From: Apoda limacodes
Taxonomy: Eukaryota > Arthropoda > Insecta > Lepidoptera > Limacodidae
Direction of reading: 5' to 3'
DNA: 64,000 nt
NCBI GenBank assembly: GCA_946406115.1
Contig: OX291545.1
Span: 7,888,001 to 7,952,000 of the forward strand
Shown: positions 1,304 to 63,400 of the stretch, piece after piece
Layout: each line of letters begins with the position of its first letter
How positions within the stretch are numbered: position 1 is the first letter of the stretch
Translations under genes and position numbers: made by a program
The notes under the pieces: model-generated
What the model was told of the DNA's origin: nothing
The model's database searches: none
Seen by the model: only the letters and a program-made list of their open reading frames with translations

Positions 1304-1932
1304 TTTTTTTTTTTTTTATAGAACTAAAGTGGCAAACAAGCTAACGGTCCGCCTGATAGTTAGCGGTCACCGTAGCCTTTGGACGCTAACAATACCAGGG
1401 GTATCACTCGCGAATTACCGACCCTTCAGAAATCTAATAACTTCCTTCTTGAAGAACCCCATACTGTAGTCTTTAGGGAAAAACTTGGCAGGGAGCTCAT
1501 TCCACAATCCAAGCGTTCACGGGAGGAAGTTTCTCTGACACCGCACTGTACGCGACCATTTCGGTTTTAAAGTCTAAGAATGAATTAACTGCCGATGGCG
1601 AGCGGTGCGATGGTAGAAAAAAGCCGTGGGCATCAAAAAATTCCTCAGAACACAAAACTATTGTACAAGCGGTAGAACACACACAGGTAGGCAAAGTCTC
1701 TCCTCATACTTAAGGGCTCGATACCGCAAATAGTTTGGAATCGTCGACAATTCTTACAGCCCGTCGTTGAACCGAGTCAAAAGGGCCAAGCTGGTATCCG
1801 GCTGCACCCACCCACTGATGGCAGCAGTTCTCCATATGGGGCCGGACATGCGACTTGTAAAGTAGCAACCTTTGCCCCGACGTGAAGTACTGCTGCGCTC
1901 TGTTGAGTACACAAGTTTTTAGGACGCCCGCT

Positions 1933-3133
1933 TCACCTTGTCTTGCAGATAATCTCGGAACTGAACATCGCTGGAGATGTCAAGGATCCCAATGCTCTTG
2001 GAGATGGAGAGGGGAGTGTTCTGGAATTGTGGGACCACAGTGAATAAGGTTTACTTAGCGGTGAACGCGCAGACTTGTGTCTTTGTAGGGTTGAATCGGA
2101 CCAGATTTTCCCGTCCCCAGTCAGAGACAGCGTGATTTCGATTTGAAACACAAGTTCTTCGTGTTTTTCCTCCACAACCGAACGAGGGAAGCTTACTCGC
2201 CCCGTGTAATAAGAGTCTCCAGTACTGTCATCTGCATAGCAATGTATGTTGTTGATGTCCAACATATCATTGATATGCAGTAGAAACAGCGTAGGAGACA
2301 GCACAGAGCCTTGTGGGACGCCAGCATTAATGGCCATGCTATCAGATCAACTACCGTCAACTGTGGCTCGTATGCGTCTGCCGGACAAAAAGCTAGCAAC
2401 CTATTTGCACAAACCCTAGGGCACTCAGTAAGATGGCAACTTCGATAGAATACCCCGGTGCCAGACCCGATCGAACGCCTTCGCTATATCCAAGCTACAT
2501 GCCAATTCCTCCCCCTGACTCTCAATGGCTAGTGCCCATCGGTGTGTGAGATACACTAGAAGGTCACCAGTCGAGTGACCGTGGCGAAAGCCATATTGAC
2601 GGTCACTGACCAGGTCGTATTCTTCTAGGTATCTTAGAAGCTGTGTGTTGATCACACGCTCCATCACCTTGGAGAGGAGAGAGGTAATAGCGATAGGCCT
2701 GTAATTCGATGTATCTGATCTATCGCCCTTTTTGGACACCTGGTACACATTCGCAGTCTTCCATGATTACGGAAATCGCCTAGTATGGTAGGAAAGTGCG
2801 AAGAGGCGCGTGAGTACAGGACATAACTCAGGAGCACACTGATTAAGCATCACTGCTGGTATACCGTCTGGCCCACTCGACTTATGAACGTCTATAGAAA
2901 GCAACGCCCGCCGGACCTCCCGATGTGTTATGGAGATTTCCGGCATGGTCTTACCGCACCTCGGTATAGTAGGTGGTACAGCGCCTTCATCGTTCATATT
3001 CGAGTTTGAGGCAGAGACTGCCCAGTAGATCGGCTTTCTCTTTAGCACTATGGGCTAAATCACCATCGGTCTTTCGCAGTGGTGGAAACGACGATTGGCA
3101 AAAGTTCCCTTCGGCAGCTTTGGCAGGCGACCA
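1933..3133 (-). pseudogene. LINE reverse transcriptase domain, broken frames
   Basis: Three minus-strand frames together cover a reverse transcriptase. The first (3048-2767) has the SSGPDGIPA motif that opens LINE RTs. The second (2748-2425) has NYRPIAITS, then YGFRHGHST, then LDIAKAFDRVWH, which holds a catalytic aspartate. The third (2337-1933) has GVPQGSVLSP and the catalytic YADD box. Frameshifts between the blocks, and a stop soon after YADD, make it non-functional. Downstream on the same strand (1900-1400) the C-terminal RT tail can still be followed in pieces up to the 3' tail of the element. Confidence 0.85.
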
Positions 3134-3514: not shown

Positions 3515-3772
3515 ATGCTAAAAGTGTTGAACAACTCATTTTTGTGAGTATAAGCTGCAATGTTAAAGTTAAAAGTGTCAAACAGCTCATTTTTGTGAGT
3601 ATAAGCTGTAAAGTTAATGTTAAAAGTGTCGAGCAACACATTTATGTGAGTATAAGCTGCAACGTTAATGTTAAAAGTGTCTAACAACTCATTTATGAAG
3701 TTATAAGTTGTAAAGTTAATACTAAAAGTATCGAACAACACATTATTATTGGTTATAAGCTGCAGTGTTAAT
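3515..3772. repeat. 51-bp minisatellite, about five copies
   Basis: A unit of about 51 bp, of the form TAAAAGTGTC..AACAACTCATTT..GTGAGTATAAGCTGCAANGTTAA, recurs about five times with substitutions. Because 51 is divisible by three, the minus strand stays open and encodes a degenerate 17-residue repeat (DTFNIN..AYTHKNEL). I read this open frame as a by-product of the repeat, not as a gene. Confidence 0.8.
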
Positions 3773-4227
3773 TTTACTAAGGAGGTAAGTACCTTCCTTC
3801 CTACAGGTTACAGATTTTGATTATTTAGTTGAAAAACCCTAATCGAATCCGTAACTAAAATGTTTACTCGGTTGTATTGGCTTGGCTATAGTGAAAGTAG
3901 TTACTTGAGTCTATTATTACACTGCTAAGTTTACTCAAGCCTGCACAATGCTCTTGACTAAAGAGTTTGTATCACTCAAAATGTAACAGATAACTTACGT
4001 GAGAGCATAAGCTTTATTATAACGTCGCCATTATTTTGGTGGACTAACCTATAAATTGACTACATTAATTATTAATTAACAAAAAAACATTTGTTATTAC
4101 ATACATTATTTATAAGATATTTGTCATTCTACTAAAGCAACTTAATTTATGATGCGATTGGTATGAAAAACGTATAAAAAATTTAGGTGTCTATTTTATA
4201 TTATTAATAGTTTTATTTAAATTCCTG

Positions 4228-28579: not shown

Positions 28580-29176
28580 AGTTGGTAGCAGAGCGTGGTT
28601 CGGACCAGATATAGGTATTTGGATCGTATTACAAATTATTTTAAATTGTCGGTTAGTTTGTTTTCGTCGGATTTACAATAAATTACAATTTAAAATTCGT
28701 TACGTCGTATAGTTCACCGGTCTTATCTCATATAATCGTTCGTCGGACATAATAATATTGGCTTATGACTTACCTACCTCTTTGTTATTGCGGTTGAAAT
28801 AGATTGGAATAAATAGGTTTTAAAATAGTTGTTTTGTTAGGATTACGATAACGTAACAATTTGTGTAATTGTGTAGTCGGGGTTTTTGTACATGGTAGTT
28901 AGAGTTTTTTTGGGGTTTATATAGTAACTTGGTTGCTGTAACAAACTGTTTATATAACAAACAGAGTCGTTCGTTTGTGTCTTTGTTTTTGTTTTGAATT
29001 GTTTATTGTTTATTGTGTGGCTCGTTACACGGGAAGATCGGACGTTTGCATTAAGGCAAAGAGCAGAATAGTTTCCGACAAGAGTAAATGAACTGGAACA
29101 GGCATACCAGGGTATCTTATCGTTAACAGATGATGAAACTATCCTAAAGACGGTAAATTCTGACTATGATTTTTGT

Positions 29177-30383
29177 ATGTCAGTAGAGGACGAGGTTAAC
29201 GAGGCTATGTCGACATTAGAGACTAGCCCGCAGCCGGCAAGTAGGAAGGTTTCGGTACAAAAATGCAACGAACGATTGCCAACTTTGGATATTCCTCATT
29301 TTAGCGGATCATTGGATGAGTGGACTATTTTTATCACACTTTTTGGTAGCATTGTGCACCAACGGACTGACTTATCTGACTCACAAAAATTAAGTTACCT
29401 TTTAACGTCTATCAGGGATGAGCCTCTCTGTTTGATAAAACATTTGCACATCACTGATGTCAATTATAATATTAACAGGGAGTTATTAGTGAAGCGGTAC
29501 CAAAATAACCGTCGCATTGCGGATACTCATGTGGCTGCCATTTTAGAGATTCCTCAATTGTCATCAGTTAACCAGCTGCGGTCGGATCTGCTCAAGGGGC
29601 CTAAAATTCCCTGTAACAGAGTGATCATTTTAATTGTTGCACATTGTACTTAACAAATTGCCCAATGACGTACAATTGCACGGAGGTGACTTGGCGTCAC
29701 ATATACCTACTTTTGACACTTTAGTGTCGTTTTTGGAGGACCGGAGTAGGAAGCTGGAGAATTTACCCGCTGAGCCACGATCGGGACCGTCACGATTTTT
29801 GGCCCCGTCTGGACTCCGTCAACAACCTCGTCCCGGGACATCGCGAGGTACCGATAAACGATTTTTGACCCGTAGGCTAGGCCTATGTTATTATTGTTTG
29901 GGGGAGCACCTGGCCAAGGACTGTCGACAGCTGCGACCTTGTACAAAGTGTGGTGGAGGTCACCACCCGGACTTATGTATGCCCATCCGAGAGGATGGTC
30001 CTCGGATGACTCATGCAGGTGTGTCTACGGCTCGCACGGGCGGGGGTTCAACCCAATCGCTCCCGTCCCCAGTGCGACATCGACCTTCCCCGCCCCGTTC
30101 ACCGCGGGCGAGCCCACGGGATGGTCGTCGGTCACCACCCTCACGTGCCCCTTCCGCTCAGGTAGGTATTGCGGAACGGGCACATTACGCGGAGTATGAG
30201 CCTCTGCCCCTCCCTATCGTGGAGCGTCCTCGCGTTAGTCGCGAGTTGAGGGCGGGATCGGGTGGCTATCGGGCGCCGCCGATGGCACGCGCGTCTCGGC
30301 ACCCACTTATGTCCGCTTGGGACCCGTATGCTTATACGGGTTCAAGCGTGGGGCATTATGAGCCACAGGAGCCTCGGGGCTAA
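29177..30383 (+). pseudogene. BEL/Pao gag remnant (two overlapping frames)
   Basis: The first frame (29177-29653) has the DUF1759-type gag core: LPTLDIPHFSGSLDEW, then SDSQKLSYLLTSIRDEPLCL and LLVKRYQNNRRI. The frame is lost near 29610 and continues in another from 29634, with LNKLPNDVQLHG and a double zinc knuckle (CYYCLGEHLAKDC and CTKCGGGHHPDLC). After it comes a low-complexity Arg/Pro/Ser tail. Gag packages the element RNA; here the frameshift alone makes it defective. Confidence 0.8.
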
Positions 30384-36430: not shown

Positions 36431-39400
36431 ATGGCAAGGAGGAAAAAACCTGCACCTCAACCTGGATCTAGGCGCTCAGCTCGACATTCTAAGCAAGAAG
36501 ATGGTTCTTCAAAAACTGAACTCACTAGCCCTGCTGAGACAGCTTCAGCTAGTGGTTTAAACGAACAAGAACCACCTCTATCATCATCACCTTCATTATT
36601 ATCTAACATAGAATCTGACTCAGTTGAACAACCAAATCCTGAAGAGACTATTAACAAACTTACTCTAACTCCAGTTGTTGCATTGCATAAGAAATTTGGT
36701 AAATACAGAATTTTGTTTAAAAATGATGATGCTACTTCAGGAAAGTCAGATATTGGCAGTGATAGTGAAACCAATAGCAGTATGGATATGAAAGTGATTG
36801 ATCTTTGTGCTAGTTCAGAATCTGAATCTAATACAATTTTAGACTCTCAACTCGAGGAAAACAATGGATCTAAATTTAACATAAGTAATGTGTTACAAGC
36901 TGAATCTAAAACAGGTTCTTCAGTAACATTGAATGAAATTCAATTAGCTAGTGAAGTCTCTGGCTCTAGTATGAATAGTCAAAACAAGGAATCAACACAA
37001 TTCCAAGAAACTATCCCACCAACTGTAGTTCCGTCGCATTTTGATCTTACTGTTGAACCAGAAACTCAAATTCATCTTCCAGTGCACTCAGAATCAAATG
37101 ATTTCAAAAATAATGATAACTTGGTAACTGAACAAAGCTTACAAGACTTGCCAATGGGTGAATACACAGGTGATGATGATGAAGTTATAACTGTTGTCCA
37201 AATTGTAGAAGATGATGTTCAGGATATGTACTATGATATCAAAATAGATAGTCCCAAAGGCGTAACATTCAATCAAGAAACTCAGAAGGATTTTCAAAAG
37301 CATTTTGAAAGACTCAATATAGCAAACATAGAATCAAATACTAATTCATTACCCAATTGTTCAAATCATTATCAAAATAGAGCTTTAAATTCTGCTATGA
37401 TGGATCTACAATTTTACAAAGAACACCATAGTGATATTTTGTCAAGACCTGATCCAAGCTTGACTCCCAGTTCTACGTTATCAGATGACAGCAATTGCTC
37501 TCCAGCTACAGATCAAAATCAAAATAATTCAAATGATTCAGCAGAGTCTTCACCAACAGGGGTTCGGCGATCTAGTCGTATCAAGACCATTAGTAATTTA
37601 AAGCAGAAAACTAAAGGTTTTGGATTAGTTAAAACACCTCTAAAGAAAGCATTGATTACCCAAACTAAACTAAAACTCGAAGAGATGAGCTCTGACAGCC
37701 AAGAAAAGCATAATGATTCAATGCTGAGTAACTCACCAAATTCACCATCTTTTCCTGTACCATCTGATATGCCTGTCAAAGTAAAGTCTCGTTGGAGAAG
37801 GTCCAGTGAGCTGGAAATGGGGGCATATTCTCCTACTTGTTCTCCTTTAGCTAGTCCAAATTTGCCCCGAATGCAAACTGTTACTGAAAATCCATCTGAG
37901 GAAGAAAATCTTTCTACTCTCAGTAAAGAGTCTTATGATATGATAATTGATGAAAGAATGAAGCAGTATCAACATTTGAATGAAAATGAGTATTTATGTG
38001 AAAGAATGATCAGCAAGGAGACCAAGAAAATGATCTGTGACTGTTTTATGACTAAAGAAGAATTAGATCGTGGTGAATTGGGTTGTGGGGAAGATTGTCT
38101 AAATAGGCTACTTATGATAGAATGGTAATAAAGGTTTTAAAAAGAAAAATAAAATAAGGAATTGAATTGATTTTAGATGTGCATTTTTGGTTTCAGCAAT
38201 TCTCGATGTCCTGTTGGTGACCGATGTACTAACAGAAGGTTTCAAAAAAACGAAAATGGACCATTAAAGGTTTTTTATGCTGATAAAAAGGGATGCGGAG
38301 TGGAGGCAACTTCTAATATACCAACGTAAGCGAATTGTAATTTACAAATAGTTTTATCTGTATAATGTCTCTAAAAATTAAGTTATATCTTATATTTGTT
38401 GATTATATCAGTGAAGGTATATTCTGTAGGACATCTGCTAATATGTTTTTATCAAGTCCATATTGAGAGGCCCTAATTTTCTATGTTAACACTGCAGGCA
38501 AAGTAGCACTCTCCATATTGTGTATAATGTTCAATTCAATTATTTCATTTTCAATCATGGTTAAATTGCTTGGTAAACCTAATAACATCATCATTTTTTT
38601 AGCAATTGGGTGAAGTACCTGGGTTCTTTGATGCAGGCAGATTTACTACACCCTGCACCACTTTGAGCTTTTTATATCTAAATAAAATAATAATAAATAT
38701 AAACCTAAAACACAATTGTTATTTCACAAACATGAGCTTAGCTTATTTTAATAAAAAGTAATTAAGGTTTAAAAAAAACAAATTTCAAACATAAGTTCAA
38801 TGTTATTATAATTTTATGATTTCGTTTCGAATTGTATATGTGTGTCAATCCCTAGGAGATAGCTAATTTCAATACATAATTGATTATGTGCACATATGTT
38901 GAGAAGCAGTAACAACTGTTGATTTCCTGAGTTTCTTTAAATTTTGCTATTAACATTTACACACTAATAATCCTTAATAATAATTTCAGGGGTGAATACC
39001 TTATGGAATATGTTGGTGAAGTTCTGGACTATGAACAGTTTTATAAACGAGCTCTAGCATATTCAGATGAGAACAATCCACACCACTACTTCATGTCACT
39101 GAAGGGTGACACATTTATAGATGCAACTCTCAAGGGTAACATTTCACGTTTCATTAACCACTCCTGTGATCCAAATGCCGAGACGCAGAAGTGGACTGTC
39201 AATGGAGAACTCAGAATAGGATTTTTTAGTAAAAGAGATATTATTCGAGGAGAAGAGGTTACATTTGACTACAGGTTTAAAAGGTTTGGGTAAGTAAGAT
39301 TGATTTATGTCCTTTTTGAGTGACCTTATAAAACCATGATACAACTTTATATTGCCTAATATATCAGCAGCTTTATCACAACTTACAATGATTTTAACAA

Positions 39401-51400: not shown

Positions 51401-54400
51401 TTATGGATGTAATTATTTTTTTTCGTCATAGTATATTAGTCAATTTATTATTCATTATTTATTATATAATCTATTTAAAATAGCATAGTACGCGTGGTAC
51501 TATAATTTTTACTATATTGTAGCCTCTGGTGACCACAATGAAGTGTGAATTCGTAACTTCGAAGACGTAAACTATATCTATATGGGTATTTGAATTATTT
51601 ATAGTTTTAAACGATTAGGTATATTTTATTCTCTGAGACAAAATTACAATATGAAAAGCACTATGCTGTAACAGTCTTACAACTTTACAAAAAATGATAC
51701 AACAAACATTTTTATTAAATACTTTACAAAGAATAGTTGACAAAATTGTGTCTCACTAGATCAAGTTTAATGATTAATGTTAAACTCTGTCAAAAAGAAA
51801 ATGGCTATTATTTATTTAATTTAAGTGAATACCCTGAGCACTTAATTTTTTTTAAATGGAAATACAAAGAAAATTTTACGGGACTTGGAAGATTATGGCA
51901 ATCAAATTTTGAATAAAAAAAATCTATCGCGTTTACCCTTCAAGGCTCAAGAATCTGTTAGTTTTGTATTACTTCCACAATTGTGTTTTGTATAGATATG
52001 TGGAATCTTTAGTAAAGAAAAGTATTGCTAGTTAGTGCTAAGGAGATAGTTTTGGATTGATCTGGACAGTTTTGGAGCTCAGGATTTATAATCAAATCTA
52101 TAAAATGCTTATCTTTTATTTCTTTAGCCAAGAACAGAAGAAGATAAGCTGGCAGGAAAGTTAGAAGTAAAGAGGTACAAGCAGACGAAAGAGAAGCTAC
52201 GCAGAAGGAGGGAGAAGTTAGTGCAGAAAGTAAAATTACTTGCCGCAAAGCACAAGCATGTCAGGGAAATGACACAGCAAGATCTAAAGGTAATCATTAT
52301 TACTATAACAAATATATATTTAATGTTACATAAGATTAAATTCAACTAAGTTGCGTTCGTCTTCGTTCGTTTATACGTCGGACTGGAGAGTTCTTAAGTT
52401 TCGCCTCTAAGTTCGCGGTCTCCACTACAGGACATGTCTACTTTATCAGCCTTTGATTCATCACATAAAATAAATGTTTTTTCTGTGCTGGGCGTAAATC
52501 TGCGTCCTCTGTGCAGCAGGTTGGGTCACCTTCAACCAGGGCGCTAGACATTCAGTTAAGATAACTATGATTTGTGTTAAAGCAATGAATTGAGTAACAT
52601 GATATACCAATACCGTAACAGTTGTATCTTTTACTGAGAGGTTAAATAAACTACTTATGTAAAATTAGCAAAGTTACATTAATTTTTATCACAAATATCA
52701 GCCAGCTGATATGGGATACATACTGAATACTTTTATATTTTTTTGTGTTATTGTTTGGTTACTTAAAAGTAGTGGTATTCAGACTCTCATAACTAAGGAT
52801 GGTGGCAATTTGGTTTAAATTTGGAGGGCACTAATCCTTCATCCTCCTCCATGTTAATCTCACCATAGTGAAAAATTTGAATATTAGTCTAAAAATTTAA
52901 AATGTGAAATTTAAACTAACTTAATAACATCTTCCACTAAAAAGTATTTCATATAATTTGTTTTAATGATTGTGTTAAATAAATCTTCCAATGACTTTGT
53001 CATCTACAGCTTGAGTTGTATATTTTAAGTAACTAATGATTTTCTTTCGTGAGCGACAGACACGATTGTCACTGTGTCCATGCGCGATTGGACCATTTAT
53101 GTCAGAAACAGACCAATCATTATATATTTGTCTTTCCCTTTGCATTGCGAAACTGTTAAAGAATGTGCTTGTTAACTTTCCAATTTTCTTCTACTGAAAT
53201 TAAAAACAATATTGTTAGGTTTTTTCACAACTTTGGGTTCCAAAGAAAAACAATGTATCATATCATACTTGTGTGCTGATGCACAACTTGTAATATATAC
53301 GGCTATTCTTTAAAATTTGAAATATTAAAAAGCCGCTGCAGATTCAAAATGGTGGATATTCACAGCCATGTTTGTTTTCAAGATGGCGGACAAAGGCAAG
53401 GGGTCCTGCCCGCGGAAGGGAAAGCCTAAGGCTTCGCCCGCGGATAAGAATGTTAGCCTAACCCCACCACAAGTGGGCGCCAAGGCTAGTATAAATTTGA
53501 CAAGTACAACTTGGCATGGCTACTGGCATCAGTGTCCTTGCATATGAGATAAAAAAAAAAAGATTTTGAATTTTAAACTTTTAGTGCTTCTTTAATTTTT
53601 CGTTAGGCCATCGCCAAGTTACGTTTATTTTATCATTGATTGTCTGTGTAGAGTAGCTTGCTTAGTGTATGTTAGGAAAATATGCATGAGAGAAAATTGT
53701 ATAGTTTCAGGTGGAGTTTCTATGGGAAAGCATAAAAAACGTTAATTTATATGCAATATTTGTTGACTTAAAAGTTATAGAGTATTTTGAGGCTGCAATT
53801 ACAGACAGTTAAATATAGATATCAGTAAGAAAACACTGGAACATGTATGTGAATGACACAACGCGTATAGACTTAGCAACAAGTATTACGGCAATAGCCA
53901 GTGGATTTTCTAACCGTTATTGTTTATAAAGACTATTACTGTTTTCATTGCCTCGTGTGTATGTATTGTGTATAATTCAATATCTGCGAGGGTGGCAATG
54001 AATAGTAAATGGTGTGGGATTTGACACCGATTCTTATTTTCGTTTTAGTTAGACGATCGAGGTGAATGGTCGATATTTACTGACAAAAACTAAACTACTA
54101 ATGAGTTTTTTACACATTTTAACATTACAGGTGTCAACACAAACATGTCTATAAAAATATATCTAATATTTCCTTGTAATTAAGTACTCATGATAACTTC
54201 TATCATATGAGAGTAGAGGGGATTCGTTGGTTCCGGCGCACTTCCCCTCGCCTAAAAAAAAGCTCACCAACTTTTCTGCTTTGTACGACTCGCGCTTGAC
54301 CACTTTCAAAACATCGTTGGTTCTGGCTCACTACCCTCCAACCCCAACCCCTCACCTAAAAACTTTTCTGCCCCGCACGACTCGCGCAAGACCACTCTCA

Positions 54401-57400
54401 AAACCACCCCTGTGTCTGGGGTGTGGCGACTCGCGCTTGACCACTCTCAAAACCACCCCTGTGTCTGGGGCTATGTCGACTCACGCAACCAACCCCTGTG
54501 TCTGGGGCTATGTCGACTCACGCTTGACCAAAACCACTGCGTGACGTCACAGTGGCTCCTGTGTATAACTTGTCTCTAGTTTTGTTATGTAATTACATCA
54601 TTATCGTAATGGGTTATCATGTTTTTCCCCGTTCATAATAAAGTTATTCCTATTTAATTACAACGATGTTGGTGGTGACATTCCAAAAACTAGTCCCCCG
54701 AGGGTGTATCTCAAGATTTTAGGGGTGTGTCCACTCACGCTTTACAAAAACAACCTGGAGACGGGTCGGTTCACGCTTGATATGACTTGACATGTTATAC
54801 CTACAGAAAATCTTCAATTCAAGTCGGTCGAAGTTTAAAGAGAAAAGCTGATAATAGTGTTAAAGATTTACAACTAGCATTGACCTCATCATGATGTGTC
54901 AAATATGTGATTTACAGGTTAAGCAAAGATTCTATGCTCAGCACTTACGATCTAAGAAACACAAATAGAAATGTCTTATTCTTAATCATAATTTACTTTA
55001 TGTGTCTGTTATATCGCTCGTGAAGTATTTATAGCATCAATTGAAGAATCAATACTATTTTATTATTCATGCAGATTTTGATCAGGAAACAAAAGATTTA
55101 AAAAATTCTTTTGAATTTTTAAATTTGACTATTAGGAATTGGATAAAAAATGGTGAATTAGAAAATTATTCAGAACCTTTAAGTGATGACATTAAAAATA
55201 AAATGTGTAATGACACATAGTGATTTAGAAAAAAAAGAAAATGTAGACCTTAAAAAAAAAAAAAAACAGTTTTTAGAAATGCATGTTAATAAGTTTAATC
55301 CCTTACGGGGATCTTCGTATATTCGTAAAAAAGAACGATCAACAATGTTTTAAGAGGACTATATCCTGCAAATACACATTCCGATAGGGTATCATCATAC
55401 TTGAGGCATTAAAATAAACTAACGTTTAATAATATTCAGTTCCCAATCAAATTATCTGATATACCCAAGGTAGAAAAACAAAATGACATTAGCATTAATA
55501 TGTTTGAATTAGAGTTTAACAAAGAAAAAAAAAACTTTACAAAATGTTCTAATTAATTACAAATTAACTTATTATTTTTAAACAACGGTTGAAATGGTCA
55601 TTATTGTATTTATCACGCTTGGTAAATAAACAAATAACAAATTGAAATGACACTATTCATATCTGGGCCGGTTGCCGTAACTATTTTTAATCTAAAGTTA
55701 ATTTAATTAATCACCAGAAACATGAATGTGCTCAAATTTTTACTGAATAACTAGGAATTCATAAAAAAGAAAAATAATGGTTTAATAGGGAAACAAATAA
55801 TGATGAAATCTATTTTGATAAATTTCAAAGAATATTAAAATTACATTTTATAATATATGCAGACTTTGTAGCTCATTTAAAACCCTCCTATTGTCACCTA
55901 TTGTGTCCCTGATCCATCGAAGTCATATACGTAAACAATACATGAACATGTAGTTTGTTCTTATGGATAATATATAAAATGTTCATATGATGATAAACTG
56001 TCTATATACAGAACATACTCAGAGCCTAATTGTACAAAAATGTTTATGGAAAGCATTAACAAAGATATTAGCAATATACATAGGATAAATTGTTTTCAAA
56101 AATGTCCACTTTCTTTAACTAATGAAGAGGAGGAATCTATAAGAAAATCGCAATTATGTTATATTAGGTGATGAAATCACAGTAGACTATGACTGGAATA
56201 CTAGTAATTTTAGAGGTGTTAGTCACGAATTATTTAGTAGCACAAAGTATCGTGTTCCATTTTTCATTCCTATTCTATTTCACAATCTAAACAATTATGA
56301 TGCTCATTTTATTGTTCATGCTTTGAATTTTAAAGATTGAGAAATAAAAATAATTCCGCAAAATAAGTAAAAATATAATTCATTCTCATGTAAACCTAAT
56401 ATGTCGTATAGTTCATTTGCGGTTTTTAGATTATTTTTAATTTATGATCTACTAGAGTTTAGATATATAGAATATTATATAAAGACCAATTTGTAGAATT
56501 AAGAAATCAATTACAAACGAATTTTAATAAACTTATTAGGAAAGGTGTTTTTCTTCATGAATTTGTTAATTCTTATGAGTCCTTAAAAATTACATCTCTT
56601 CCAAATCAAGACGCTTTCTTTAACTCTTTAATACCAGTGTATCAAATTATAATTATAAACATGCTCAAAACGATGTCAGCCCAATTTAAATGTAAAAATA
56701 TGTTGGAATATTCCAATCTATATTTAAGAACTTATGTAATGCTACTCACTGATATTTCTGATAACTTTAGAATTTTTATATCTAATGTGATATAATTGTA
56801 ATTATTTATTTTCTTCTTTTTACACTAAGCTGTACACCTATCTATAATATATTTTTGCCACGGAAAATGAGCTCTATTTTAAAATTAACCTGTAACCTTA
56901 AGTACCCTGAACATTTACATGATCTTAATTCAGATTTACCTTTATGCCCTGAAAAACATTGTAAACGATTACAGTAAAGATAAGAAATTAGTATCAAAGT
57001 TTTATAATAAAACTAAAATATAATTTACTATAGAAATCTCAAACAATGTTTACAACTTACTATGAAGTTAATTAGGGTTCATAGAGTTTTACAGTTTAAG
57101 CATAGTCCTTAGTTGAAATATATATAGATTTAAATACACAAGTAAGAACTACAGCTAAAAGTGACTGAAAAAGATTTTTATAAATAATACATTCTTTGGT
57201 AAAATATGGAAAATGTTGAAAAACGTGTATTTGTGAAAAAAAGATATTTATTTGGAGAATTATAAGTCGTGTCTATGTATCACAAATGTAAATAGTTCAC
57301 GTGCAGAATTCGAAGTGTGAAACATACTATTTTACACAAAAAATTAAAAAAAATTTGTTGTAGACTTTTAGTTCTCCAAATAAATCTCTTTTTTTGTCAC

Positions 57401-60400
57401 ACTTTTCTTGAAAACTTTAGATTCGGCAATTACTTTAAAGATTGAGAAATAAAAATAATTCCGCAAAATAAGTAAAAATATATTTCATTCTCAAATAAAC
57501 CTAATATGTCGTATAGTTCATTTGCGGTTTTTAGATTATTTTTAATTTATGATCTACTAGAGTTTAGATATATAGAATATTATATAAAGACCAATTTGCA
57601 GAAATAAGAAATTAATTACAAACGAATTTTAATAAACTTATTAGGAAAGGTGTTTTTCTTCATGAATTTGTTATGTCAGCTCAATTTAAATGTAAAAATA
57701 TGTTGGAATATTCCAATCTATATTTAAGAACTTATGTAATGCTACTCACTGATATTTCTGATAACTTTAGAATTTTTATATCTAATGTGATATAATTGTT
57801 ATTATTTAGTTCTCCAAATAAATCTCTTTTTTTTTGTCTCACTTTTTTGAAATCTTTAGATTCGGCAATTACTTCAAGCAATTATAAGTCTACAACAAGT
57901 TTTATTAATTTTTGAGAATTCTGTAGGACTCTCGAAATACTTGTTACGATTTTGTATATTGGAAATATAAAAATTTTGATGTATAACTTTCATTATTATA
58001 CCATGCACAAAAAAATAAGATAATAGTGTCAAGTTATAATACCCTGATACGGGTAGCTTCGTTTAATATGTATTTACAGATAATTTTTATAATGATGTAA
58101 AATCTGACTTAGATTTTTTTTCGATACTTCAGACTATCCTAATGATAACATTTATGGTTACTTTATAATTAAACTTTAATAAAACGAAACTTGCGTATTA
58201 CAATGGTGAAGTATTTCGAGAGTCTACAGACTTACCAAAGAATGTATTATTTATAAAAATCTTTTTTTCAGTCACTTTTAGCTGTAGTTCTTACTTGTGT
58301 ATTTAAATCTATATATATTTCAACTAAGGACTATGCTTAAACTGTAAAACTCTATGAACCCTAATTAACTTCATAGTAAGTTGTAAACATTGTTTGAGAT
58401 TTCTATAGTAAATTATATTTTAGTTTTATTATAAAACTTTGATACTAATTTCTTATCTTTACTGTAATCGTTTACAATGTTTTTCAGGGCATAAAGGTAA
58501 ATCTGAATTAAGATCATGTAAATGTTCAGGGTACTTAAGGTTACAGGTTAATTTTAAAATAGAGCTCATTTTCCGTGGCAAAAATATATTATAGATAGGT
58601 GTACAGCTTAGTGTAAAAAGAAGAAAATAAATAATTACAATTATATCACATTAGATATAAAAATTCTAAAGTTATCAGAAATATCAGTGAGTAGCATTAC
58701 ATAAGTTCTTAAATATAGATTGGAATATTCCAACATATTTTTACATTTAAATTGGGCTGACATCGTTTTGAGCATGTTTATAATTATAATTTGATACACT
58801 GGTATTAAAGAGTTAAAGAAAGCGTCTTGATTTGGAAGAGATGTAATTTTTAAGGACTCATAAGAATTAACAAATTCATGAAGAAAAACACCTTTCCTAA
58901 TAAGTTTATTAAAATTCGTTTGTAATTGATTTCTTAATTCTACAAATTGGTCTTTATATAATATTCTATATATCTAAACTCTAGTAGATCATAAATTAAA
59001 AATAATCTAAAAACCGCAAATGAACTATACGACATATTAGGTTTACATGAGAATGAATTATATTTTTACTTATTTTGCGGAATTATTTTTATTTCTCAAT
59101 CTTTAAAATTCAAAGCATGAACGATAAAATGAGCATCATAATTGTTTAGATTGTGAAATAGAATAGGAATGAAAAATGGAACACGATACTTTGTGCTACT
59201 AAATAATTCGTGACTAACACCTCTAAAATTACTAGTATTCCAGTCATAGTCTACTGTGATTTCATCACCTAATATAACATAATTGCGATTTTCTTATAGA
59301 TTCCTTCACTTCATTAGTTAAAGAAAGTGGACATTTTTGAAAACAATTTATCCTATGTATATTGCTAATATCTTTGTTAATGCTTTCCATAAACATTTTT
59401 GTACAATTAGGCTCTGAGTATGTTCTGTATATAGACAGTTTATCATCATATGAACATTTTATATATTATCCATAAGAACAAACTACATGTTCATGTATTG
59501 TTTACGTATATGACTTCGATGGATCAGGGACACAATAGGTGACAATAGGAGGGTTTTAAATGAGCTACAAAGTCTGCATATATTATAAAATGTAATTTTA
59601 ATATTCTTTGAAATTTATCAAAATAGATTTCATCATTATTTGTTTCCCTATTAAACCATTATTTTTCTGTTTTATGAATTCCTAGTTATTCAGTAAAAAT
59701 TTGAGCACATTCATGTTTCTGGTGATTAATTAAATTAACTTTAGATTAAAAATAGTTACGGCAACCGGCCCAGATATGAATAGTGTCATTTCAATTTGTT
59801 ATTTGTTTATTTACCAAGCGTGATAAATACAATAATGACCATTTCAACCGTTGTTTAAAAATAATAAGTTAATTTGTAATTAATTAGAACATTTTGTAAA
59901 GTTTTTTTTCTTTGTTAAACTCTAATTCAAACATATTAATGCTAATGTCATTTTGTTTTTCTACCTTGGGTATATCAGATAATTTGATTGGGAACTGAAT
60001 ATTATTAAACGTTAGTTTATTTTAATGCCTCAAGTATGATGATACCCTATCGGAATGTGTATTTGCAGGATATAGTCCTCTTAAAACATTGTTGATCGTT
60101 CTTTTTTACGAATATACGAAGATCCCCGTAAGGGATTAAACTTATTAACATGCATTTCTAAAAACTGTTTTTTTTTTTTTAAGGTCTACATTTTCTTTTT
60201 TTTCTAAATCACTATGTGTCATTACACATTTTATTTTTAATGTCATCACTTAAAGGTTCTGAATAATTTTCTAATTCACCATTTTTTATCCAATTCCTAA
60301 TAGTCAAATTTAAAAATTCAAAAGAATTTTTTAAATCTTTTGTTTCCTGATCAAAATCTGCATGAATAATAAAATAGTATTGATTCTTCAATTGATGCTA

Positions 60401-63400
60401 TAAATACTTCACGAGCGATATAACAGACACATAAAGTAAATTATGATTAAGAATAAGACATTTCTATTTGTGTTTCTTAGATCGTAAGTGCTGAGCATAG
60501 AATCTTTGCTTAACCTGTAAATCACATATTTGACACATCATGATGAGGTCAATGCTAGTTGTAAATCTTTAACACTATTATCAGCTTTTCTCTTTAAACT
60601 TCGACCGACTTGAATTGAAGATTTTCTGTAGGTATAACATGTCAAGTCATATCAAGCGTGAACCGACCCGTCTCCAGGTTGTTTTTGTAAAGCGTGAGTG
60701 GACACACCCCTAAAATCTTGAGATACACCCTCGGGGGACTAGTTTTTGGAATGTCACCACCAACATCGTTGTAATTAAATAGGAATAACTTTATTATGAA
60801 CGGGGAAAAACATGATAACCCATTACGATAATGATGTAATTACATAACAAAACTAGAGACAAGTTATACACAGGAGCCACTGTGACGTCACGCAGTGGTT
60901 TTGGTCAAGCGTGAGTCGACATAGCCCCAGACACAGGGGTTGGTTGCGTGAGTCGACATAGCCCCAGACACAGGGGTGGTTTTGAGAGTGGTCAAGCGCG
61001 AGTCGCCACACCCCAGACACAGGGGTGGTTTTGAGAGTGGTCTTGCGCGAGTCGTGCGGGGCAGAAAAGTTTTTAGGTGAGGGGTTGGGGTTGGAGGGTA
61101 GTGAGCCAGAACCAACGATGTTTTGAAAGTGGTCAAGCGCGAGTCGTACAAAGCAGAAAAGTTGGTGAGCTTTTTTAGGCGAGGGGTTGAGGTTGGAGGG
61201 TAGTGCGCCAACGATGTTTTGAGAGTGGTCAAGCGCGAGTCGTACAAAGAAGAAAAATTGGTGAGCTTTTTTTTTAGGCGAGGGGTTGAGGTTGGGGGGA
61301 AGTGCGCCAGAACCAACGAATCCCCTCTACTTATGAGTACCAATATAGGTTCGATAGATTCGTTTTATAACGAATCGATATTTAACAATGTCTGTTGTTG
61401 TACCCTTAATAAAGGTTAGAAATTTTTAGAGTAACTCTTAAATATCAACTTTGTATAGTCTTTTTTGCAGTAGATATTATAATCATGTGTGTATTTAAAA
61501 CTTTTTTTTTCTTAATAGTCTTATGTTAACTAAATTCTAACCTGAAAATCACGAAAACCATGAAATATGAAAGGCCACAAGATAAAGTATAGTTGCATCC
61601 TCTTTTTCAATTTAGCTTTTTTCTCCTTTCTTATATTTTGACTTTTTGAGCCATTGTTTCATTGTTTTAAATAAGACGTATAATGCGACAAACTTCTCTG
61701 ACCCGGTGGTCAAACATCGAAACTACAGTCGCCGTATATAAAAATAATGATGTTAACTTACGCGACACTAGCGAAATACACCGGGTCACTAAAGTTAGTT
61801 CTACTGTACAGTTCGAACCACGGATCTTGGGGTTGCCTGATTGACGATTATCTAAGAACAATCGAGCGAAAAATGTGTGAAAAATTGTAATAATAATTAA
61901 AATTGTATAGATACGGACTATATTTTAAACACTTTTATGGGTTAAAGTTCATGTGCAACTTATAACCTTCAAACTCCAAAATCCGTGTACAGTCAAGTTG
62001 TTTACAAAAAAACGGTGTAGTGTGCTTTGTTTTATTAGCATGTCATATTTATTTGATCTATTCCTGCGTACATAAACTACTATATTATTTTTATATATAA
62101 GTGTATGCTTTGTTACGGATGTAATATTTACATTTGCAACATGTTATTTCTTTATTCATGTTATTACAAGTCAAAAACATTTGCCGCACGCGCGCTTTTT
62201 ACTGAGAAACGTAGCAGAGATACTCACAAATTAAATTCATACATACAAGTTGACTTGAAGTAGTGCATTTTAATATATTTTTCTTTTAGAATAAACATAT
62301 ATTATAGGATTCTATAATTTAATTAAAAATCTAATCTCATTAATATTATTTTAAGAGAGGCAGGGCACAGCGACTACTCGCTCGAATAAGCCGCCCTAAC
62401 AACAACTGGGGAATTACCTCCACCTTACAGAAAACCGCGGCCATAATAACACTAACATTGAATAGTGTTGTGTTCCTGGCGGTGAGTAAGGTTGCCAGAG
62501 CTCTTTGAGCATTCGCTGCGCGAATCGACTGCGAATGTGCACCCGAGCAGGGTTATAGATTAGATCCATCGAATTACAGGCCTTTTGCTATTACCTCTTT
62601 CCTTTCGATGGTGATGGAGCGTGTGATCAACACCACAATTCCAGAACACTACCCTCTCCATCTCCAAGAGCATTGGAATCCTTGGTGTTGACATCTCCAG
62701 CGATGAATTAATGCAGCATAATATACTGGCCTTCTCATCCAACATCTATGACTCTTAATTCAAACTGTCACTCATTTATCAAATAAAATATCATAATCAT
62801 TGTTCTAGGTTAAGTTTATTAACATAGCAATCCGAGAAATATATATATATATAATCTTTATTTTGTGCATTGATAGGACTTAAAATTATATAAACCTTAG
62901 TTTATTGTTTACGCCTTGTTTATTTAGTATTATTTGTTATTATAGTTGATATTTTGACATTAGACTGTAAATCTAAACTGTTATTACCCTGGTAGATCTT
63001 AGTAGTGCAATAAGATCAAATATCATAATACATTAATAGGGCTTTTGAATTTTTCTTATCAGATGGCAGAATTAATTGAGTCAGATAGCGACTCTGACGG
63101 AGATTCAGACGAGGTGGTCGAAGTGCCACAAACCCCCGTGGCTGACACGTCACCTAAGGCAACATCGCCGGCCGAGCCGGAAGACCCGGAGGAGACGGCG
63201 AGAAGGATCAAGGAGCAGTTCAGGAGCAGTATGGCGCGCGTAATGGTACACCACCTAAACCCGTATCGGCATTCGGATGCGCCCGCCGGGCGGATCACAT
63301 GTACGGCGGACTTCAAACATCTCGCTCGGAAGGTCAGATATTTATGGATTTATTCATATAGCGAAAAAGGTAATCGTGAAAAATGGAGACTTTAAAGAAA

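What the first reader, a model, noticed from the sequence alone, without database searches (positions are those of the whole stretch)
54206..61337. Palindromic, non-autonomous Polinton-like element with perfect 6-bp target duplication inside Set2
TATGAG flanks a 7.1 kb unit on both sides. The unit starts 5'-AGTAGAGGGG and is mostly two inverted arms of about 3 kb. Known Polintons are 15-20 kb with single-copy cores and terminal inverted repeats of up to about 1 kb. Here nearly the whole element is terminal repeat, and the only genes are broken halves of DNA polymerase B. Intact ends with a dead core and a clean TSD imply it was mobilised by enzymes in trans after the palindrome formed, which would be a foldback form of Polinton. 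Seen: ends, TSD, arms, motifs. Known: 6-bp TSD and PolB in Polintons. Inferred: mobilisation as a palindrome.
Basis: partly seen in the sequence, partly recalled or inferred. Interest (0 to 1): 0.88.

Follow-up and report, generated by a model that had tools for sequence, protein, structure and literature searches.

The report
Mobile palindromic foldback Polinton family
The 7.1-kb insertion in this animal's Set2 gene carries a fold-back junction found at 56 places in the same genome: it belongs to a family of near-perfect DNA palindromes in which one end of a virus-like Polinton transposon, with a broken polymerase gene, stands twice head to head; this form has spread to many sites and is likely carried by the proteins of full-length Polintons that share its ends.

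Summary
A 7,120-bp unit (54212-61331) with exact TATGAG duplications lies between the SET- and SRI-coding parts of Set2. Its two 3-kb arms differ by 5 substitutions around a 1.03-kb loop. It is not a one-off. The 800-Mb genome holds 875 matches (up to 2 mismatches) to its 22-nt end. Of 20 other family loci read, 18 have inverted arms and 12 have perfect 6-bp duplications. The window's own fold-back junction occurs in 9 of 21 loci and at 56 genomic places. Eight of those nine loci have eight different duplications, so the palindrome formed once and then spread as a palindrome. A related empty site carries a single TSD. Arm and loop read N-to-C through a broken PolB. Of ten 12.7-13.0-kb units with the same ends on three contigs, five hold one of 42 scored PolB frames; they are likely helpers. 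The two arms of an element are sisters in 14 of 17 elements, so arms are re-equalised. Integrase was not tested. No description of palindromic Polintons was seen in eight searches.

The parts
54206..54211 (.). left 6-bp target-site duplication TATGAG
61332..61337 (.). right 6-bp target-site duplication TATGAG
54212..61331 (.). whole palindromic element, 7,120 bp, ends AGTAGAGGGGATTCGTTGGTTC in inverted orientation
   Evidence: 875 matches to this end in the genome, up to 2 mismatches
54212..57202 (+). left arm: terminal repeat array followed by broken PolB reading inward
58232..61331 (-). right arm: inverted copy of the left arm
54378..54523 (+). terminal tandem array of left arm (49-nt and 37-nt units)
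60909..61309 (-). terminal tandem array of right arm (37-, 49- and 96-nt units)
54897..54965 (+). C2H2-like N-terminal piece of the PolB gene
   Evidence: matches residues 8-30 of P0044; mirror at 60467-60535 (-); weak zinc-finger hits below cut-off
55210..57238 (+). broken PolB, P0002 residues 80-885 in order, with a stretch from residue 645 to at least 737 missing
58219..60158 (-). the same broken PolB in the right arm
57203..58231 (.). single-copy loop between the arms
57434..57811 (+). 98%-identical partial duplicate of 56329-56811 (104 nt deleted) inside the loop
57878..58155 (+). later part of PolB (P0002 residues 919-1006) continuing the left arm's reading direction
   Evidence: E 5e-5
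58220..58245 (+). fold-back junction 26-mer, shared by 9 of 21 loci and 56 genomic places
38931..39293 (+). host Set2: SET domain frame upstream of the insertion
   Evidence: E 6.9e-21
63006..63395 (+). host Set2: SRI domain frame downstream of the insertion
   Evidence: E 5.1e-6

Best explanation
This is a non-autonomous foldback (palindromic) Polinton-type element: one end of a Polinton, its terminal repeat plus a broken PolB gene, stands twice, head to head around a 1-kb loop, and the palindrome has spread to many sites with 6-bp target duplications, likely by means of the replication and integration proteins of full-length Polintons that share its ends. Shown: the stem-loop anatomy, the PolB order through left arm and loop, the junction shared by loci with different duplications, the broken PolB in every family locus read, PolB frames inside 12.7-13.0-kb units with the same ends, and the sister relation of the two arms in most elements. 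Inferred: the palindrome was born once for this class when a protein-primed, strand-displacing polymerase switched template and copied back along the strand it had made, so both ends became the PolB-proximal end (origin plus integration site). Inferred: helper proteins act in trans on the shared ends. Inferred: the displaced single strand of a palindrome folds into a hairpin whose arms pair, so mismatches are copied or repaired and the arms are made alike again in each cycle.
For: Perfect TSDs in 12 of 20 fetched loci plus the window; both ends were detected in 17 of these 21, and 13 of the 17 have the TSD (in L046 the first base of the left end is read as C instead of A, in L032 an extra AGT follows the TSD). 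875 end matches at up to 2 mismatches, control 0. Arm marker 424 + 404 at up to 3 mismatches, control 0 and 1. Of 90 exact arm markers on C1-C3, 64 form 32 head-to-head pairs and 26 are unpaired. All 18 exact end pairs of 4-9 kb there hold an exact marker (15 in both arms, 3 in one); none of the 11 pairs of 12.7-16 kb does. Junction 26-mer in 9 of 21 loci (the same nine by a 90-nt probe) and at 29 + 27 places, 53 of them exact, control 0 (two of the 56 lie 0.4 kb apart). Empty site with a single TACAGT in two related repeats. Among the 9 same-junction elements (995 columns free of gaps), 17 variable sites are shared by both arms of one element only, 8 are in one arm, none crosses elements; 1,000 shuffles of arms gave mean 0.93, maximum 12. 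L035 supplies 8 of the 17; without it 9 against a shuffle maximum of 7. PolB. Long units: 42 scored PolB hits of 3,195 candidates, 32 without internal stops, frames 1,130-1,227 aa; of the 12 on C1-C3, 5 lie in 12.7-13.0-kb units with both ends exact, 4 have one exact end within 14 kb, 3 have none listed.
Against: No integrase, ATPase, protease or capsid gene was tested in the long units. The rve search did not complete, and their TSDs could not be read. Their PolB starts 1.9-2.1 kb from the end, against about 0.7 kb in the palindromes, and none of the 11 long pairs on C1-C3 has an exact copy of two arm probes (one search read off its list). They look like helpers or cousins, not the direct parent. 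PF03175 run on this genome gave no hit, although one search then found PolB. Only 6 of the 120 listed relatives of P0002 bear a precomputed PF03175, and 2 of 6 scanned. Three of 17 elements (L031, L034, L043) do not have sister arms, and support for some sister pairs is low, down to 0.66. In 8 of 17 elements (L031, L033, L034, L043, L044, L047, L048, L050) some other arm is closer than the element's own second arm. L038, L039, L044 and L050 have no TSD, and in L039 both ends are good. Twelve of 21 loci lack the window's junction, so the family has more than one centre form. Arm identity could also come from gene conversion after insertion.
Confidence: 0.82

Rival explanations
1. Each palindrome formed on its own at its site after insertion, by inward extension of the terminal repeat (gene conversion or break repair), so the palindrome itself never moved.
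For: Arms are sisters within 14 of 17 elements, which independent formation would also give; centres differ between groups of loci.
Against: The same fold-back junction stands in 9 of 21 loci and at 56 places, eight of the nine loci with different TSDs and flanks.
Confidence: 0.07
2. It is a foldback element of another superfamily (cut-and-paste transposase acting in trans, as in Galileo) that captured a PolB fragment.
For: No integrase was shown; foldback-like elements with long, internally repetitive TIRs are known in the P superfamily (passages of PMC3573991); a palindromic hAT-derived MITE is described in passages of PMC12368964.
Against: Broken PolB matches lie inside every family locus read, and long units with the same ends carry PolB frames at a fixed distance from one end. 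6-bp TSDs and AGT-type ends fit Mavericks as quoted from PMC8097293 passages.
Confidence: 0.1
3. The arms are kept alike by gene conversion between the inverted arms after insertion, not by hairpin pairing during mobilisation.
For: Close inverted arms in other genomes convert (recalled); searches show homogenisation but not when it happens.
Against: None decisive; the terminal arrays of the two arms differ in length in the window, so conversion is at least not complete.
Confidence: 0.4
4. Assembly artefact: a palindromic read or a false join made the inverted arm.
For: Palindromic chimaeras are a known long-read artefact (recalled).
Against: Flanks that differ on the two sides with a perfect TSD, an asymmetric loop, arm differences, and the same structure at many sites.
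Confidence: 0.01

Closest known systems
Polinton/Maverick self-synthesizing transposons
   Same: 6-bp TSD, long terminal inverted repeat, AGT-type ends, PolB near one end; 12.7-13.0-kb relatives with PolB frames share the ends. PMC8097293 passages: 6-bp TSD, (AGT)2 or (AG)3 ends in vertebrates, intact size 12,723-24,620 bp, TIR 46-1,447 bp.
   Different: The palindromes are about 4-9 kb, nearly all terminal repeat, show no single-copy gene set, and PolB is broken in each of the 21 loci read.
Galileo / Foldback elements
   Same: Foldback shape with long, internally repetitive inverted ends; the longest TIRs occur in non-autonomous copies (passages of PMC3573991).
   Different: [quoted passage not shown] here the arms are about 3 kb and consist largely of a PolB gene.
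Snap-back (copy-back) defective virus genomes
   Same: Stem-loop with the same terminus at both ends, one junction, helper dependence (recalled). [quoted passage not shown] that defective adenovirus DNA includes inverted duplications is recalled.
   Different: Here the form is integrated, multicopy and flanked by target duplications.
MITEs
   Same: Transposase-less, high-copy derivatives mobilised in trans; palindromic hAT-derived MITEs are described (passages of PMC12368964).
   Different: MITEs known to me (recalled) derive from cut-and-paste elements; this one derives from a self-replicating element and is kilobases long.

Membership tests
Polinton/Maverick | 6-bp target-site duplication | tested here: met
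   12 of 20 fetched loci plus the window; 13 of the 17 loci with both ends detected. Not readable for the long units
Polinton/Maverick | AG/AGT-type ends in inverted orientation | tested here: met
   AGTAGAGGGG at both ends; L032 left end AGTAGTAGAGG; reported vertebrate motifs (AGT)2 and (AG)3 from PMC8097293 passages
Polinton/Maverick | PolB gene | tested here: met
   present but broken in the 21 family loci; frames of 1,130-1,227 aa elsewhere, in 5 of 10 of the 12.7-13.0-kb units on C1-C3
Polinton/Maverick | retroviral-type (rve) integrase | not tested
   search not answered
Polinton/Maverick | packaging ATPase, protease, capsid genes | not tested
   letters of the long units could not be fetched
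Polinton/Maverick | length of about 12.7-40 kb with a single-copy core | tested here: not met
   not met by the palindromes (about 4-9 kb); size met by 10 of the 29 exact end pairs on C1-C3, 12.7-13.0 kb; sizes from passages of PMC8097293 and PMC8969392
Foldback/Galileo (P superfamily) | P-type transposase | not tested
   no family search was run for it; in the 21 loci no stop-to-stop frame exceeds 162 aa except a 432-aa repeat artefact in L046
Snap-back defective genome | same terminus at both ends, loop single-copy, one junction | tested here: met
   (definition recalled)
Snap-back defective genome | replication dependent on a helper | not testable with these tools
   inferred from the broken PolB and from PolB frames elsewhere

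The most novel reading that the evidence does not exclude
A heritable satellite of a self-synthesizing transposon: a snap-back defective genome of a Polinton that became a transposon family in its own right. It carries only origin and integration ends, lives on helper Polintons, and renews itself through a hairpin in which one arm templates the other in every cycle, so its two arms evolve in concert.
Probability: 0.4. Interest if true: 0.85.

Novelty: new variant of a known kind. Interest (0 to 1): 0.68.

Why it matters
Polintons sit at the junction of transposons and DNA viruses, yet how they replicate and integrate has not, to my knowledge (recalled), been shown directly in animals. A natural family that keeps only one end, twice, suggests what the machinery needs in cis, and its arm history records how the molecule was copied. 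It also shows that a virus-like transposon can have high-copy derivatives that insert into host genes such as Set2; among exact end pairs on three contigs the short form stands 18 to 11 against the long one.

Tried and rejected
Direct Pfam and PHROG scans of PolB pieces found no polymerase family. Searches of solved structures found nothing useful. Protein search of one piece alone found nothing at the cut-off, and no relative was confirmed in viral contigs. PF03175 over the genome gave 0 hits while controls were silent or rang in 1 of 14, hence uninformative. NCBIfam gave nothing and PHROGs only endonuclease VII-like matches and one unnamed family on the Hermetia proteins. The 432-aa open frame of L046 is a tandem-repeat artefact, not a gene. 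Rejected: assembly artefact, segmental duplication, independent palindromes for the window's class. Rows dropped in the arm comparison: L039 right arm, L042 left arm, both arms of L046 (985 nt matched, cut 1,000) and L049 right arm; 17 of 21 elements kept both arms. One search measured inverted arms in 17 fetched loci and the window; L041, L042 and L049 were left out of it (L041 shows both arms, L042 one arm, L049 one arm and a short part of the second). The pattern searches list only the first 100 places, exact ones first, so all per-unit statements hold for exact matches on C1-C3 only. Literature searches for palindromic, foldback or non-autonomous Polintons: (listings seen); passages read in PMC5033970, PMC6431247, PMC2836005, PMC8969392, PMC8097293, PMC3573991 and PMC12368964; none of what I saw described one, but the library is open-access only.
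Full report
What was claimed.

The element itself. The unit spans 54212-61331 (7,120 bp) between exact TATGAG copies. Arms 54212-57202 and 58232-61331 align with 5 substitutions, three 2-nt indels, and a 14-nt and a 97-nt length difference inside a terminal tandem array. The loop (57203-58231) holds a 98% partial copy of arm sequence (57434-57811). SET and SRI domain hits on either side show that the insertion is in Set2.

PolB. Separate open pieces hit no polymerase family. The 110-aa piece at 56463-56792 finds two Hermetia illucens proteins (E 1.8e-9 and 2.2e-9, 42% identity). Of the 120 listed relatives of one of them, 6 bear a precomputed PF03175; of six proteins that I scanned, two have DNA_pol_B_2 (3.6e-24 and 2.5e-26), both chosen for that label. 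tblastn of eight of these proteins gives colinear matches on both arms. The left arm carries P0002 residues 80-885 and the loop residues 919-1006, in the same direction. Reading left arm then loop thus gives one PolB from N to C, after which the sequence turns back. A stretch from residue 645 to at least 737 is missing from the window. It includes the invariant block D722, N724-G728, which I take for palm motif A (name recalled). In all 21 loci, tblastn matches above 28 bits cover none of residues 650-759 (19 loci) or 9 of them (L038, L045), and every locus has stops inside its matches. These copies are not expected to supply the polymerase.

A family, not a single accident. The window lies in an 800-Mb genome of 31 contigs. 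The 22-nt end occurs 437 + 438 times at up to 2 mismatches, reversed-pattern control 0. Twenty further stretches of 9.5-10 kb were fetched. Inverted arms of 0.86-6.9 kb were measured in 17 of them and are visible in L041; L042 shows one arm, L049 one arm and part of the second. L045 and L046 are palindromes almost end to end. Perfect 6-bp TSDs were found in 12 of the 20: GACGTA, TACGTG, CATACG, TCTGCA, ACCTAT, ACTAAA, GACCAC, TTTACG, GACGTA (two loci share this word but not their flanks), TACAGT, TATGTA, GTAATA. No TSD: L038, L039, L044, L050. Only one end seen: L041, L042, L048, L049. One insertion, L045, sits in a repeat of which two uninterrupted relatives (in the window at 1325-2062 and in L048) carry a single TACAGT at the site.

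The palindrome moved. The junction where the window's loop meets its right arm occurs in L033, L035, L036, L037, L038, L040, L043, L047 and the window, and at 56 genomic places (53 exact, control 0; two lie 0.4 kb apart). Eight of these nine loci have perfect TSDs, all different. One fold-back event followed by spread explains this; repeated formation of the same junction does not. The other 12 loci lack this junction.

The arms evolve together. Excluding the terminal array, the two arms of an element differ by 0-0.57% (17 elements), against a between-element median of 0.51% over 649 comparisons; in 9 of the 17 the own second arm is nearer than any other arm, in 8 it is not. In the tree, arms are sisters in 14 of 17 elements, with support from 0.66 to 1.0. 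Among the nine same-junction elements (995 gap-free columns), 17 variable sites are shared by both arms of just one element, 8 are in one arm, and none crosses elements; shuffling arms gives mean 0.93 and maximum 12 in 1,000. L035 supplies 8 of the 17; without it the count is 9 against a shuffle maximum of 7. As the palindrome is older than these insertions, arms must have been re-equalised since. Hairpin pairing of a displaced strand during replication is my preferred, inferred cause; gene conversion after insertion is not excluded.

The likely helper. Among the first 100 listed exact ends, 29 pairs were found, all on C1-C3: 18 of 4-9 kb, 10 of 12.7-13.0 kb and one of 16 kb. All 18 short pairs hold the exact PolB arm marker (15 in both arms, 3 in one); none of the 11 long ones does, nor an exact marker from element position 416 (read off). 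One of the 11 has the exact terminal-array word at both ends. A P0002 search scored 42 of 3,195 candidates: frames of 1,130-1,227 aa, 32 without internal stops. Of the 12 on C1-C3, five lie inside 12.7-13.0-kb units with both exact ends, PolB 1.9-2.1 kb from one end and reading inward; four have one exact end within 14 kb, three none listed. So some units with the same ends still encode open PolB. Their layout near the end differs from the palindrome arms, so they are likely helpers or cousins, not its direct source. Their integrase and TSDs remain untested.

How it most likely works. Shown: architecture, common junction, spread, broken PolB, concerted arms in most elements, PolB-bearing long units with the same ends. 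Inferred: birth by template switching and copy-back in protein-primed replication; replication and integration by Polinton proteins in trans through the shared ends; arm renewal through a hairpin.

What it is called. By TSD, ends and PolB it belongs with Polintons; by size and lack of a core it fails the definition of a full Polinton, and the integrase was not tested. It is best called a foldback, non-autonomous Polinton derivative: a new variant of a known kind. Eight searches of the held open-access library gave no listing that describes one.

Noticed in passing
G000 C13:18513625-18540946: Four same-strand element ends spaced 9,955, 8,538 and 8,539 bases apart, as in a head-to-tail array of element-bearing units.
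   Followed up: no
L041:4235-8611: The centre holds several tandem inverted units about 1,107 nt apart, so the palindrome core itself seems to amplify.
   Followed up: no
L046:3452-4747: Palindrome centre made of short tandem repeats running head to head, open in frame on both strands for 432 aa; a repeat artefact.
   Followed up: partly
L032:1416-1425: Left end carries an extra AGT (AGTAGTAGAGGGG) inside the TSD; such a repeat could come from slippage at protein-primed initiation (the mechanism is recalled from adenovirus).
   Followed up: no
window 1325-2766 (-): Reverse-transcriptase-bearing repeat (RVT_1 at 2425-2763); 1325-2062 matches the host repeat of the L045 insertion and shows its empty site.
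   Followed up: partly
window 29072-29653 (+): DUF1759 frame upstream of Set2, probably from a retroelement.
   Followed up: no
window 3515-3776: Tandem array of 51-nt units, 5 copies.
   Followed up: no
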